The position numbers and the translations under genes are program-made. 64,000 nucleotides of DNA from Allostella sp. ATCC 35155 (lineage in GTDB: Bacteria; Pseudomonadota; Alphaproteobacteria; ATCC43930; Allostellaceae): the NCBI GenBank assembly GCA_006738865.1, contig AP019701.1:1298001-1362000 (forward strand), given 5' to 3'. The notes below the pieces were generated by a model. It was given only the letters and a program-made list of their open reading frames with translations, made no database searches and had not been told where the DNA came from. Positions 20,873 through 24,387 of this stretch are shown one piece after another (positions within the stretch are counted from its first letter, which is position 1; each line of letters begins with the position of its first letter).

Positions 20873-22501
20873 ATGACCCATCCCGCCATCCGCGCCCACC
20901 GCCCGCTCGTCATGGGCCGCAATGGCGCGGTCGCCAGCAACCACCCGGTCGCGACCCAGGCGGGCCTCGACGTCCTGCGCGCCGGCGGCAATGCCGCCGA
21001 TGCGGCGCTGGCGACGGCGCTGGCGCTCGGCGTCGTCGAGCCGCACATGTCGGGCCTCGGCGGCGACGGGTTCTATCACGTCCTCGACGGCCGCAGCGGC
21101 CGCTCGACCGTCTTCAACGGCACCGGTACGGCGGCCGCGGCGGCGACCGCGGAATTCTACCGCGCGCGGCCGGATGGCATCCCCAGCTTCGGCGCGCTCT
21201 CGATCTCGGTGCCGGGCACCGTGTCAGGGCTGGCGGCCATGCACGGGCGCTTCGGGGCGCGGCCCTGGAGCAGCCTGTTCGGCGGCGCGGTGGAGGCGGC
21301 CCGGCATGGCTTCGCCGCGACCCACGGCTACCGCCATTTCTCGGGCGAGAACCGCAATCGCCTGCGGCCGGACGCGCGCAGCGCCGCGACGTTCCTCGGG
21401 AGCGGCGGCGAGGCCCCGGCGCTCGGCGACCTCGTCCTCCAGCCCGACCTCGCGCGCTCCCTGGAGCTGCTGGCCGAGGGCGGTGCCGCCGCCTTCTACG
21501 AGGGCGACCTGGGGCGCCGCATCGCCGCCGGCATCGCGGCGGCGGGCGGCCTCGTCACGGCCGACGATCTCGCGCGTTGCCGAGCGGAGGAGGTGGCGCC
21601 GATCGCGGTGTCCTATCGCGGGCACGAGGTGCGGCAGACGCCGCCGAACTCGACCGGCTTCACCATGCTGCAGATGCTGAAGATCGTGGAGCGCTTCGAC
21701 CTGGCGGCGCTCGGCTGGGGCTCGCCGGCGCTGCTGCACCGGCTGGTCGAGGCGAAGAAGCTGGCCTTCCTCGACCGCGAGCGGTACGGCGCCGATCCCG
21801 CCGGGCGGACGATCCCGCTCGATCGCCTGCTGTCCGACGAACACGCGGACAAGCTCGCCGCGATGGTCGATGCCGAACGCGCCGCCGACCGGCCGGTGCG
21901 GGGCGAGCGGGCCGAGGGCGACACGACCTATTTCTGCGTCGTCGACCGCGACGGCAACGCCGTGTCGGCGATCCAGAGCATCAACTCGTCCTTCGGCTCG
22001 GGCGTCACGGCGGGCGACACCGGCATCCTGATGAACAACCGCATGTGCTACTGGCACCTCGACCCGGGCCACGCCAACGAACTGACCCCGGGCCGCCGCG
22101 TGCGCCACACGATGAACGCGCCGATCGTGCTGAAGGACGGCCGGCTGTGGGCGGTCTTCGGCACGCCCGGCGCCGACAACCAGGTGCAGGTGAACCTGCA
22201 GGTGCTGGTCGGCATGGTCGATTTCGGCCTCGACCCGCAGCAGGCCGTCGAGGCGCCGCGCTGGTCGAGCAGCCAGGTCGGGCAGGAGGCCAACCACCCC
22301 CATGGCGGCGACGCCGGCCTCACCCTCGAAGGCCGCTTCGCGCCCGAGACGGCGGCGGCGCTGCGCGCCCTCGGTCATGCGGTGAAGACGGTGGGCGACC
22401 TCGACGGCCCGTGCAGCGTCGAGGCGATCCGCGTCCTCGACAACGGCATCCGCATGGCCGCCTCCGACCCCCGCCGCGACGGCTGGGCGGGGGCGTACTG
22501 A
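20873..22501 (+). CDS. ggt: gamma-glutamyltransferase family protein
   Basis: A 542-residue Ntn-hydrolase precursor. The start at 20873 follows CGGAG. The conserved early block QAGLDVLRAGGNAADAALA precedes PHMSGLGGDGF. The auto-processing and catalytic threonine is Thr351 in EGDTTYFCVVDRDGNAVS, followed by the small-subunit segments SINSSFGSG and the GTPGADNQ loop. There is no signal peptide, so unlike the E. coli periplasmic enzyme this one looks cytoplasmic, as in the YwrD-type branch. It should cleave or transfer gamma-glutamyl groups from glutathione-like compounds. No glutathione operon is nearby. Confidence 0.9.
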   Translation: MTHPAIRAHRPLVMGRNGAVASNHPVATQAGLDVLRAGGNAADAALATALALGVVEPHMSGLGGDGFYHVLDGRSGRSTVFNGTGTAAAAATAEFYRARPDGIPSFGALSISVPGTVSGLAAMHGRFGARPWSSLFGGAVEAARHGFAATHGYRHFSGENRNRLRPDARSAATFLGSGGEAPALGDLVLQPDLARSLELLAEGGAAAFYEGDLGRRIAAGIAAAGGLVTADDLARCRAEEVAPIAVSYRGHEVRQTPPNSTGFTMLQMLKIVERFDLAALGWGSPALLHRLVEAKKLAFLDRERYGADPAGRTIPLDRLLSDEHADKLAAMVDAERAADRPVRGERAEGDTTYFCVVDRDGNAVSAIQSINSSFGSGVTAGDTGILMNNRMCYWHLDPGHANELTPGRRVRHTMNAPIVLKDGRLWAVFGTPGADNQVQVNLQVLVGMVDFGLDPQQAVEAPRWSSSQVGQEANHPHGGDAGLTLEGRFAPETAAALRALGHAVKTVGDLDGPCSVEAIRVLDNGIRMAASDPRRDGWAGAY

Positions 22502-22560
22502 GGGGAGCATTCGAGGGCGCTGAGGGCCTGCCTGCCGGCGACCGCGGGCGGGCGCTTCAT

Positions 22561-22658
22561 GCGGAGTTTGATGGGCCTATTCGCCGCGTATCATGCGGTG
22601 AATAGGCTTGCGCATGCGGAGAATGCTCGGCATGTTCGCCGCAATGGGTGCGGAGAAT
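22561..22658 (+). promoter_or_regulatory. array of six GCGGNGAAT-type half-sites in front of the fic gene
   Basis: Copies of a 9-mer close to GCGGAGAAT lie at 22561 (forward, GCGGAGTTT), 22579 (inverted, ATTCGCCGC), 22595 (forward, GCGGTGAAT), 22616 (forward), 22634 (inverted, GTTCGCCGC) and 22650 (forward, GCGGAGAAT). The three-site pattern repeats with a period of exactly 55 bp. The middle pair forms TATTCGCCGC-N7-GCGGTGAATA, a 9-of-10 palindrome. The last copy ends at the base before the fic ATG. A possible promoter (TTGATG 22568, TATCAT 22589, 15-bp spacer) lies within the array. This looks like an operator, perhaps autoregulatory. Confidence 0.6.
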
Positions 22659-23777
22659 ATGCCGACCTACATTCACGAGCTTCAAGGCTGGCCCGCCGTT
22701 CAATGGAGCAGCCAGCATTTGGCCGGCCAGTTGGCTGCGGTGCGTCATCGCCAGGGGCGGCTGCTGGGGCGGATGGAGGCGCTCGGGTTCGAGTTGCGGG
22801 CCGAGGCCGTCCTGCAGACCCTGACCGAGGATGTGCTCAAGTCCAGCGAGATCGAGGGCGAGCTTCTCGACAAGGAGCAGGTGCGTTCTTCGATCGCCCG
22901 CCGCCTCGGCATGGATATCGGCGCGCTGGCGCCGGTCGACCGCGACGTCGAAGGCGTCGTGGAGATGATGCTCGACGCCACCCAGAATTATGCGGCGCCC
23001 CTCACGGACGAGCGGCTGTTCGCCTGGCATGCGGCGCTGTTTCCGACCGGGCGCAGCGGCATGACGAGGATCGTCGTCGGCGCCTGGCGCGCTGCGGCGT
23101 CGGAGCCGATGCAGGTCGTCTCCGGCCCGATCGGCCGCGAGAGGGTGCACTATGAAGCGCCGGCGGCGGGGCGGCTCGACGTGGAGATGGACGCCTTCAT
23201 CTCCTGGTTCGACGACGACGTGCCGCTCGATCCGGTGCTGAAGGCGGCGGTCGCCCACCTGTGGTTCGTCACCATCCATCCCTTCGAGGACGGCAACGGC
23301 CGGATTGCCCGCGCCGTCGCCGACATGGTGCTGGCGCGATCGGAAGGCAGCCCGCAACGCTTCTACAGCATGTCCGCGCAGATCCGCCTGGAGCGGAAGG
23401 ACTACTACGCGATCCTCGAGCGGACCCAGAAAGGCGGTCTCGACATCACCGCGTGGCTGCAATGGTTCCTGGGCTGCCTCGACCGTGCGTTCGATGGCGC
23501 CAAGCAGATCCTGGCCAATGTCCTCCGCAAGGCGCGCTTCTGGGACGCGATGGCGGGCCAGCCGCTCAATGAGCGCCAGCGCAAGGTCGTCAACCGCCTG
23601 CTGGACGGTTTCGAGGGCAAGCTCACCTCGTCCAAATGGGCGGCGCTGACCAAGACATCGCCCGACACGGCCCTGCGCGACATCAACGATCTCGTGGGCC
23701 GGGGCGTACTCGTGAAGGATGACGCGGGCGGGCGCAGCACGAGCTATTCGCTGGCGAAACCGGGCAACGACGGATGA
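22659..23777 (+). CDS. Fic family AMP-transferase with DUF4172-type N-terminus and C-terminal winged helix
   Basis: A 372-residue protein starting MPTYIHELQGWP, the usual opening of this Fic branch. The inhibitory helix motif SSEIEGE (62-68) is followed by the active loop HPFEDGNGRIAR (207-218), with all catalytic residues intact. The C-terminal 65 residues look like a winged helix (RQRKVVNRLLDGFEG... SPDTALRDINDLVGRGVL). Such enzymes AMPylate proteins, and the SXXXE(G/N) helix blocks ATP until relieved. An in-frame ATG at 22608 exists, but the 17 extra codons would be encoded by the repeat array, so 22659 is preferred. The DNA-binding tail plus the array suggests self-regulation (inference). 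Confidence 0.88.
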   Translation: MPTYIHELQGWPAVQWSSQHLAGQLAAVRHRQGRLLGRMEALGFELRAEAVLQTLTEDVLKSSEIEGELLDKEQVRSSIARRLGMDIGALAPVDRDVEGVVEMMLDATQNYAAPLTDERLFAWHAALFPTGRSGMTRIVVGAWRAAASEPMQVVSGPIGRERVHYEAPAAGRLDVEMDAFISWFDDDVPLDPVLKAAVAHLWFVTIHPFEDGNGRIARAVADMVLARSEGSPQRFYSMSAQIRLERKDYYAILERTQKGGLDITAWLQWFLGCLDRAFDGAKQILANVLRKARFWDAMAGQPLNERQRKVVNRLLDGFEGKLTSSKWAALTKTSPDTALRDINDLVGRGVLVKDDAGGRSTSYSLAKPGNDG

Positions 23778-23820
23778 GGAGGGATCGGGTTCTTGAGATG
23801 CCGACGGCCATTGAATCGCC

Positions 23821-24387
23821 TCAGCACAGACGGCGCAGCTTCGCCATCGCCGCCGCCACGCAGGAGAGTTCGCCGGCATCCTCGCCCGGCGCGAACCAGC
23901 GAACGTCGCCGACCTCGCCCTCGGGGCCGCGGTCGGCCAGCCGGCCTTCGAGGCGGACGAGGTAGCGGAAGTCGAAATGGAGGTGGCCGGCCTCGCCCTT
24001 GCGCGGGTTGGGCGGGATCGGGTGGATGTCGATGTCGAAGGGCACGCGCGGGTCGTCGCACCAGGGGATGAGGTGGGCGGCGGCGGCGCCCGTCTCCTCG
24101 CGCATCTCGCGCAGCACGCCCTCCCAGGCCATCTCGCCGGGATCGACATGGCCGCCCGGCTGCAGCCAGCGCTGCAGGGTCTCGTGGAAGATCAGGAGGA
24201 CGCGGCCGGCCGGGTCGAGGATGACGCCGCTGCCGGTGACGTGGCCGGACATGGTGCTGCGGTCGTGCGGGTCGTCCGCCAGCAGCAGGCGGCGGCGCAG
24301 CGGCAGCAGCGCCGCCGCCTCGTCCGGGTTGTGGGTGGCGTAGACCTCGACGAGGGAGCGGTAGAGGGCGTGGGCAGGAGTCGGCAT
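23821..24387 (-). CDS. NUDIX hydrolase
   Basis: A 188-residue protein starting MPTPAHALYRSL, with a complete Nudix box GX5EX7REXXEEXG beginning at GGHVDPGEMAWEG, about 85-108. It has an N-terminal helical extension of about 40 residues before the Nudix fold. Nudix enzymes cleave nucleoside diphosphates linked to another group; neither the substrate nor a partner is evident. It lies 32 bp downstream of the class III aminotransferase gene on the same strand, so co-transcription is likely. Confidence 0.87.
   Translation of the reverse strand: MPTPAHALYRSLVEVYATHNPDEAAALLPLRRRLLLADDPHDRSTMSGHVTGSGVILDPAGRVLLIFHETLQRWLQPGGHVDPGEMAWEGVLREMREETGAAAAHLIPWCDDPRVPFDIDIHPIPPNPRKGEAGHLHFDFRYLVRLEGRLADRGPEGEVGDVRWFAPGEDAGELSCVAAAMAKLRRLC

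What the first reader, a model, noticed from the sequence alone, without database searches (positions are those of the whole stretch)
22561..22661. Six-copy 9-mer array with 55-bp period directly in front of a Fic enzyme that carries a winged helix
GCGGNGAAT half-sites occur as forward-inverted-forward, repeated once with exact 55-bp spacing (about five helical turns), and the last copy touches the start codon. The Fic protein ends in a winged-helix domain. The simplest reading is that the Fic protein binds these sites and represses itself, coupling AMPylation activity to transcription. The repeat also argues against the upstream start at 22608, since those codons would be made of repeat.
Basis: partly seen in the sequence, partly recalled or inferred. 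Interest (0 to 1): 0.65.

Follow-up and report, generated by a model that had tools for sequence, protein, structure and literature searches.

The report
Fic enzyme with co-evolving operator array
A protein-modifying Fic enzyme carries, directly in front of its own gene, an array of short DNA sites whose letters change together with the enzyme's DNA-reading helix across several bacterial phyla, which strongly suggests that the enzyme switches off its own gene.

Summary
Six GCGGNGAWT half-sites (F-R-F twice, 55 bp apart) end at the start codon of a solitary DUF4172-Fic-winged-helix gene (22659-23777). Homologues from several phyla carry such arrays: 287 of 332 distinct loci by two patterns, against about 4 of 332 after shuffling. 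The half-sites interleave with the promoter (-35 TTG, F site, -10 overlapping the R site, F site at the start codon), so binding should block transcription; the TTG at 22608 aligns with the -35. Site letters follow residues 335-336, the start of the recognition helix: D336 goes with C at site position 3, alanine mostly with A, arginine with G; K or H at 335 goes with changes at position 5. A rule fixed beforehand was right in 66 of 66 decidable held-out loci at position 3 and 62 of 65 at position 5; one plasmid locus seen later breaks it. In 60 chosen genomes, 54 of 57 exact F-R pairs lie at a fic gene. The Fic protein very probably binds its own promoter and represses itself. Precedents exist (CccR autorepression; CbFic2 DNA-driven switch); no family-wide operator or specificity code was found in eight paper searches. 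No binding was measured.

The parts
22561..22569 (+). half-site F1 (GCGGAGTTT, degenerate)
22579..22587 (-). half-site R1 (GCGGCGAAT)
22595..22603 (+). half-site F2 (GCGGTGAAT); R1-F2 is the only exact R-F pair in the 5.34-Mb genome
22608..22613 (+). -35 hexamer TTGCGC, by alignment with relatives; this TTG is not a start codon
   Evidence: TTG 17 nt before the -10 in 70 of 119 anchored relatives; a consensus promoter scan of this stretch found nothing
22616..22624 (+). half-site F3 (GCGGAGAAT), inside the -35/-10 spacer
22631..22636 (+). -10 hexamer CATGTT (weak here; CATAAT, TATAAT, TATATT or CATATT in 93 of 119 relatives), overlaps R2
22634..22642 (-). half-site R2 (GCGGCGAAC, one mismatch)
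22650..22658 (+). half-site F4 (GCGGAGAAT), abuts the start codon
22659..23777 (+). fic gene, 372 aa
   Evidence: homologues have an ATG at or near the equivalent place
22668..22913 (+). DUF4172 domain (aa 4-85); holds the dimer interface in CbFic2
   Evidence: PMC10628234
22842..22859 (+). class II inhibitory motif SSEIEG (aa 62-67); E66 invariant in 34 sequences
23277..23312 (+). Fic active-site motif HPFEDGNGRIAR (aa 207-218)
23571..23753 (+). C-terminal winged helix (aa 305-365 in the model)
   Evidence: (weak HTH_DeoR, below its cut-off)
23661..23699 (+). recognition helix aa 335-347; residues 335 and 336 track the half-site letters

Best explanation
The array is the operator of an autorepressor. 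The Fic protein binds half-sites TGCGGNGAWT through its C-terminal winged helix; the first two residues of the recognition helix (335, 336) help to choose positions 3-5 of the half-site. Dimers, probably joined through DUF4172, occupy F-R pairs (18 bp) and neighbouring F sites. Because F3 lies between -35 and -10, R2 overlaps -10 and F4 abuts the start codon, occupancy excludes RNA polymerase and keeps the enzyme scarce. SHOWN by computation: array, conservation, promoter overlap in relatives, residue-to-site covariation, rarity of the array elsewhere in genomes. INFERRED: binding, repression, dimer geometry. INFERRED from CbFic2: DNA-bound dimers favour deAMPylation and free monomers AMPylation, so one DNA contact would hold down both amount and activity of the enzyme.
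For: Conservation: at least 2 array-spaced sites upstream of 171 of 196 D336 genes and 75 of 136 others; 41 of the remaining 61 others have at least 2 TGANNNATA sites; shuffled upstreams 3.8 of 332 and 0.35 of 61; region -634..-500 5 of 232, where the proximal region has 188 of 232. Promoter overlap: consensus of 119 anchored of 196 D336 loci. Covariation over 246 loci with sites: D336 with C3 171 of 171, others without C3 73 of 73 decidable; among others K335 with C5 28 of 32, non-K 0 of 38; with D336, H/K335 with non-G at position 5 9 of 9, other residues 1 of 159; R336 with G3 5 of 5, other non-D residues 1 of 68. Held-out test, rule written: position 3 66 of 66 decidable, position 5 62 of 65. 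Model: helix 335-347, block pLDDT 92; nearest fold 8CIL. Self-directed: 54 of 57 exact F-R pairs in 60 chosen genomes lie at a fic gene, backward control 0. In congener G003 the DNA match runs from R1 to near the gene end only.
Against: No binding or expression data. Independence is limited: D336/C3 rests on 2 independent pairs, K335/C5 on 5 concordant, 0 opposite and 3 uninformative pairs (p 0.0625), H/K335 and R336 on 1 supported pair each, and held-out loci include relatives of the first set. In the mutual-information scan, columns outside the winged helix (V97, R227, Q233, T56) also rank above P335, a sign of shared descent. Exceptions: L313, L315, L345; plasmid locus L366 with A336 but C3 in 4 of 5 sites; L013 and L037 have mixed sites. 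45 of 332 loci show no array by either pattern. The window's own -10 is weak, no promoter was found there by consensus scan, and its genome has no exact F-R pair.
Confidence: 0.9

Rival explanations
1. Another regulator of the host binds the array and controls fic; the Fic winged helix has another job.
For: No binding test exists; regulator genes occur near some plasmid copies.
Against: Site letters track residues of the Fic protein itself; the array accompanies the gene across phyla and on 13 of 13 viewed plasmids, while no neighbour family recurs at more than 7 of 80 loci.
Confidence: 0.05
2. The sites act in the mRNA: R2 and F4 form a hairpin with the ribosome-binding site in its loop and control translation.
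For: The R2-F4 loop holds an SD-like 4-mer in 45 of 119 relatives; R-F 16 pairs agree at position 9 above expectation (0.73 against 0.52).
Against: At the variable position 6, hairpin-forming R-F pairs agree no more than F-F pairs 34 bp apart that cannot pair (0.49 and 0.50, both expected 0.33). The -10 overlaps R2 in relatives, so a full hairpin would hardly be transcribed, and unit 1 lies upstream of the promoter.
Confidence: 0.03
3. Beyond repression (not exclusive with the best explanation), the operator DNA holds the enzyme in its dimeric deAMPylating state; loss of the DNA, for instance of a plasmid, frees an active AMPylase: a one-gene addiction module.
For: CbFic2 switches this way with random DNA (PMC10628234, abstract and sections 15 and 16, first parts). 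Homologues occur in 955 of 72,556 plasmid records; of 13 viewed, 3 sit directly behind repABC and 6 others within 5 kb of rep, par, relaxase, tra or toxin-antitoxin genes. Presence is sporadic: 4 of 43 genomes of the order, the own one included.
Against: No baseline was taken for the plasmid neighbourhood, and 4 of 13 show none of these genes; many copies are not known to be on plasmids; nonspecific chromosomal DNA would compete.
Confidence: 0.1

Closest known systems
CccR (Yersinia pseudotuberculosis YPK_0951; PMC9755527, passages read)
   Same: Fic plus C-terminal HTH; footprinted inverted repeats near -35 and -10 of its own promoter; autorepression shown; a dimer-interface mutant no longer represses.
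   Different: Published operator is one pair, AGATAATCAT-N26-ATGATAATCT; T6SS effector with FtsZ as target. Its sequence was not fetched or compared here.
CbFic2 (Coxiella burnetii CBU_0822, PDB 8CIL; PMC10628234, abstract, passages and parts of sections 6, 15, 16 read)
   Same: DUF4172, class II Fic, winged helix; nearest solved structure; binds DNA via its HTH.
   Different: Only random DNA was tested; the authors call a specific binding sequence a matter for future study; studied as a histone-modifying enzyme. Its promoter was not looked at here.
SoFic (Shewanella oneidensis, 3EQX, 3ZCN, 3ZEC)
   Same: Fic with winged helix; dimer through the same N-terminal helix according to PMC10628234.
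   Different: 16-18% identity in the fold match; DNA binding not demonstrated according to PMC10628234.

Membership tests
DUF4172-Fic-wHTH proteins (CbFic2 type) | DUF4172 plus Fic domain in one chain | tested here: met
   PF13776 E 7.5e-32, PF02661 E 1.9e-15
DUF4172-Fic-wHTH proteins (CbFic2 type) | C-terminal winged helix | tested here: met
   model with three helices and two wing strands; 8CIL TM 0.86; the Pfam HTH_DeoR match alone is below its cut-off (13.9 of 21 bits)
Class II Fic AMPylase | HPFx(D/E)GNGRxxR and N-terminal (S/T)xxxE(G/N) (motif forms partly recalled) | tested here: met
   HPFEDGNGRIAR and SSEIEG; H207, P208, D211-R215, R218, E66, G67 invariant in 34 sequences
Class II Fic AMPylase | AMPylation and deAMPylation activity | not testable with these tools
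   no assay
Fic-HTH autorepressor (CccR kind) | inverted repeats over the own promoter | tested here: met
Fic-HTH autorepressor (CccR kind) | own protein binds these repeats | tested here: inconclusive
   indirect: covariation and held-out rule; no binding assay
Fic-HTH autorepressor (CccR kind) | repression relieved by deletion of the gene | not testable with these tools
   experiment needed
Type II toxin-antitoxin module | adjacent conserved antitoxin gene | tested here: not met
   among flank ORFs (60 aa or more) of L006-L085 no family recurs at more than 7 of 80 loci; very short partners would be missed

The most novel reading that the evidence does not exclude
A one-gene addiction module in which the operator DNA is the antidote: the array both represses fic and holds the made enzyme as an inactive or deAMPylating dimer; when the DNA carrying the array is lost, free monomers AMPylate a cell target. 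The half-site specificity code would keep related copies in one cell from neutralising each other.
Probability: 0.08. Interest if true: 0.88.

Novelty: new variant of a known kind. Interest (0 to 1): 0.64.

Why it matters
The CbFic2 paper leaves the specific DNA sequence of such Fic enzymes open. The arrays give predicted cognate operators for hundreds of family members, residues that help to read them, and natural swaps (K335/R335, D336/A336, H335, R336) to test. DNA-controlled AMPylation can then be studied with the right DNA instead of random DNA, and the winged helix appears first of all as a self-repression device in bacteria.

Tried and rejected
Rejected: chance repeat; start codon at 22608 (it aligns with the -35); type II toxin-antitoxin pair; phage origin (19 of 50,697 phage records match, all under 60% identity and the 15 listed under 29%); a wide regulon (57 exact F-R pairs in 60 chosen genomes, 54 at fic by my comparison of coordinates; two of the other three precede a small HTH gene, L356 and L357, and the third, L358, appears to lie in coding sequence). 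Tried without gain: fitting the N26 spacing of CccR to the spacings here; the consensus promoter scan of the window. Paper searches found CccR and CbFic2 but no described family-wide operator; besides the two papers named, passages of one review (PMC12894286) were seen, the rest as listings only.

Limits: GNNNNGAWT cannot see the TGAG[CT]TATA-type sites of the most distant group; those were counted with TGANNNATA. The spacing filter and the rule came from the first 229 loci, so only and the 13 plasmid loci are tests, 12 of 13 fit and L366 does not. The R2 anchor asks for CCGC in R2 and GCGG in F3, so those letters are conserved by construction; the -35 and the letters before R2 are not. Rows dropped: of 244 first loci, 7 not full length, 6 duplicates and 2 with short upstream; of 111 later loci, 4 already seen and 4 partial.

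Full report
WHAT IS THERE. Six half-sites lie at 22561 F, 22579 R, 22595 F, 22616 F, 22634 R and 22650 F, two F-R-F units exactly 55 bp apart, the last ending one base before the ATG at 22659. Four match GCGGNGAAT exactly; 22634 has one and 22561 two mismatches. Single 9-mers are not rare (4 found, 4.7 expected), but the six-site geometry scores 46 of 48 letters against a maximum of 31 in 3000 Markov shuffles (the template was taken from the array itself). The gene encodes 372 aa: DUF4172 (aa 4-85), Fic (114-225) and a sub-threshold HTH_DeoR match. The AlphaFold2 model (mean pLDDT 90.9, 34 sequences) shows a C-terminal winged helix with helices 305-315, 324-331, 335-347 and strands 351-353, 363-365. 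Its nearest solved fold is 8CIL, 43% identity, TM 0.86. Key residues of the catalytic and inhibitory motifs are invariant in 34 homologues.

CONSERVATION. Whole-genome searches, with differing E-value limits, matched 4 of 43 genomes of the order (the own one included), 80 of 397 of the phylum, 31 of 296, 31 of 247 and 32 of 247 of three other phyla, 70 of 370 of one class and 24 of 194 of a further phylum; of these matches the best 30 per search and stretches that I chose were fetched. Record titles include Alphaproteobacteria, Syntrophaceae, Acidobacteria, Verrucomicrobia, Nitrospira, Runella and Bdellovibrio, many as MAGs. After dropping partial proteins, duplicates and short upstreams, 332 loci remain (229). 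At least two array-spaced GNNNNGAWT sites occur in 171 of 196 loci with D336 and 75 of 136 others; of the 61 others without them, 41 have at least two TGANNNATA sites. Shuffled upstreams give 3.8 of 332 and 0.35 of 61; a stretch 500-634 bp upstream gives 5 of 232 where the proximal stretch gives 188 of 232. 45 of 332 show neither.

GEOMETRY AND PROMOTER. In D336 loci of the first set the commonest steps are F-R 18 (138 times) and R-F 16 (100); short F-F steps run mostly from 19 to 23. In other loci F-R 18 stays (46), and R-F is 16 (28) or 26 (11), about one helical turn apart; the TGANNNATA group has F-R 20 (47) and R-F 24 or 25 (30), which is 18 and 26-27 in the frame of the other pattern. 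I infer that F-R 18 is the dimer unit. Of 196 D336 loci 119 could be anchored on R2; their consensus is cTTGCnttTGCGGaGAATannggcTATAATCTCCGCAnaannTGCGGA: TTG at -35 with a 17-nt spacer in 70, 18 in 18, 16 in 8 and 19 in 4; at -10 CATAAT or TATAAT in 60, TATATT or CATATT in 33. F3 sits in the spacer, R2 overlaps the -10, F4 follows. The anchor asks for the cores of R2 and F3, so these are conserved by construction; -35 and the letters before R2 are not. The window was not among the anchored rows because R2 is degenerate; by alignment its -35 is TTGCGC (22608-22613) and its -10 CATGTT (22631-22636). A consensus scan there found no promoter. The TTG at 22608 is thus read as the -35.

WHO READS THE SITES. 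In the first 229 loci the letters of the half-site T1 G2 N3 N4 N5 N6 G7 A8 W9 T10 follow residues 335 and 336. A mutual-information scan of protein columns filled in at least 80% of 167 loci put D336 first and P335 seventh; columns outside the winged helix (V97, R227, Q233, T56) also rank high, so shared descent contributes. I wrote down the rule and then fetched 111 further loci (17 of them, L339-L355, from genomes whose matches had been listed earlier but whose DNA there had not been read). Four were already seen and four partial; of the 103 tested, 67 had array-spaced sites by GNNNNGAWT and 36 did not. Position 3 was right in 66 of 66 decidable loci (1 undecided), position 5 in 62 of 65 (L313, L315, L345 wrong, 2 undecided). 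Many of these are relatives of the first set. A class not in the first set appeared: N335-R336 with G3 (GGCG) in 5 of 5 loci. Over all 246 loci with sites: D336 with C3 171 of 171, others without C3 73 of 73 decidable; without D336, K335 has C5 in 28 of 32, non-K in 0 of 38; with D336, H335 or K335 has non-G at position 5 in 9 of 9, other residues in 1 of 159. On a tree built without the winged helix, D336/C3 has 2 independent pairs, both concordant; K335/C5 has 5 concordant, 0 opposite and 3 uninformative (p 0.0625); H/K335 and R336/G3 have 1 supported pair each. Counter-examples: L013 and L037 (A336 inside the D336 clade) have mixed sites, and the Bradyrhizobium plasmid copy L366 (A336) keeps C3 in 4 of 5 sites, although position 4 is no longer G in any; the other 12 of 13 plasmid loci fit. 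The residues are the first two of the modelled recognition helix, where winged helices commonly touch the major groove (recalled).

SELF-DIRECTED AND PORTABLE. In 60 genomes that I chose among those with close fic homologues, the exact F-R pair occurs at 57 places in 43 genomes; by my comparison of coordinates 54 lie directly upstream of a fic match; the backward control gives 0; the window's own genome has none because F1 and R2 are degenerate. Two of the three others precede a small HTH gene (L356, L357); the third (L358) appears to lie in coding sequence. The R-F pair occurs in 32 of 60 genomes, and once in the window's 5.34-Mb genome, at this array. In congener G003 the DNA match runs only from 22579 (R1) to 23756, while the two flanks match elsewhere in that genome; G001 has the flanks at separate places, G002 on different contigs of a draft, and neither has fic. 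The cassette thus seems to travel as array plus gene. Homologues occur in 955 of 72,556 plasmid records. Of 13 viewed, three sit directly behind repABC, six lie within 5 kb of repC, repA, parAB with a relaxase, toxin-antitoxin or tra genes and four show none of these; no baseline was taken. Among ORFs in the flanks of L006-L085 no family recurs at more than 7 of 80 loci.

MECHANISM. The best reading is autorepression by steric block of the promoter. Published precedent: CccR represses its own promoter through inverted repeats near -35 and -10 (PMC9755527, passages). For CbFic2 the paper (PMC10628234; abstract, passages, section 6 and the first parts of sections 15 and 16) reports nanomolar binding of random DNA, DNA-induced dimerisation and a shift from AMPylation to deAMPylation, and says that future studies of a specific binding sequence would be of special interest. 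If this holds for the whole family, the operator would restrain both synthesis and activity; that step is inferred. An mRNA hairpin is a weak rival: at position 6, R-F pairs agree no more than F-F pairs that cannot pair, although at position 9 they agree more.

NOVELTY. Eight searches found CccR and CbFic2 but no conserved operator or specificity code; the library holds open-licence papers only. I class it as a new variant of a known kind.

Noticed in passing
L356 about 2103-2145 and L357 about 1974-2000: Two genomes (G1254, G420) carry an additional GCGG array or pair roughly 100 bp upstream of a small HTH gene (MEV.HLNQKQLAARWSIS...), a possible second target of the Fic regulator.
   Followed up: partly
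L360, L369, L371 (plasmids), position about 5000: fic with its array sits directly behind repABC on three Rhodobacterales plasmids, in two of them (L360, L371) beside a RES/Xre gene pair.
   Followed up: partly
window 22501-23840: fic lies between two genes whose relatives are far apart in the single-contig congeners G001 and G003 and on different contigs in the draft G002, so the cassette sits at a break in gene order.
   Followed up: partly
L010 and L022: These two homologues run on for about 90 residues beyond the winged helix (463 and 459 aa) with similar C-terminal extensions.
   Followed up: no
L043: A 72%-identical homologue with an ordinary recognition helix but no array in the 198 bp held upstream.
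   Followed up: no
L316, L319, L321, L324, L325: N335-R336 goes with GGCG-type half-sites, a class that the first 229 loci did not show.
   Followed up: partly
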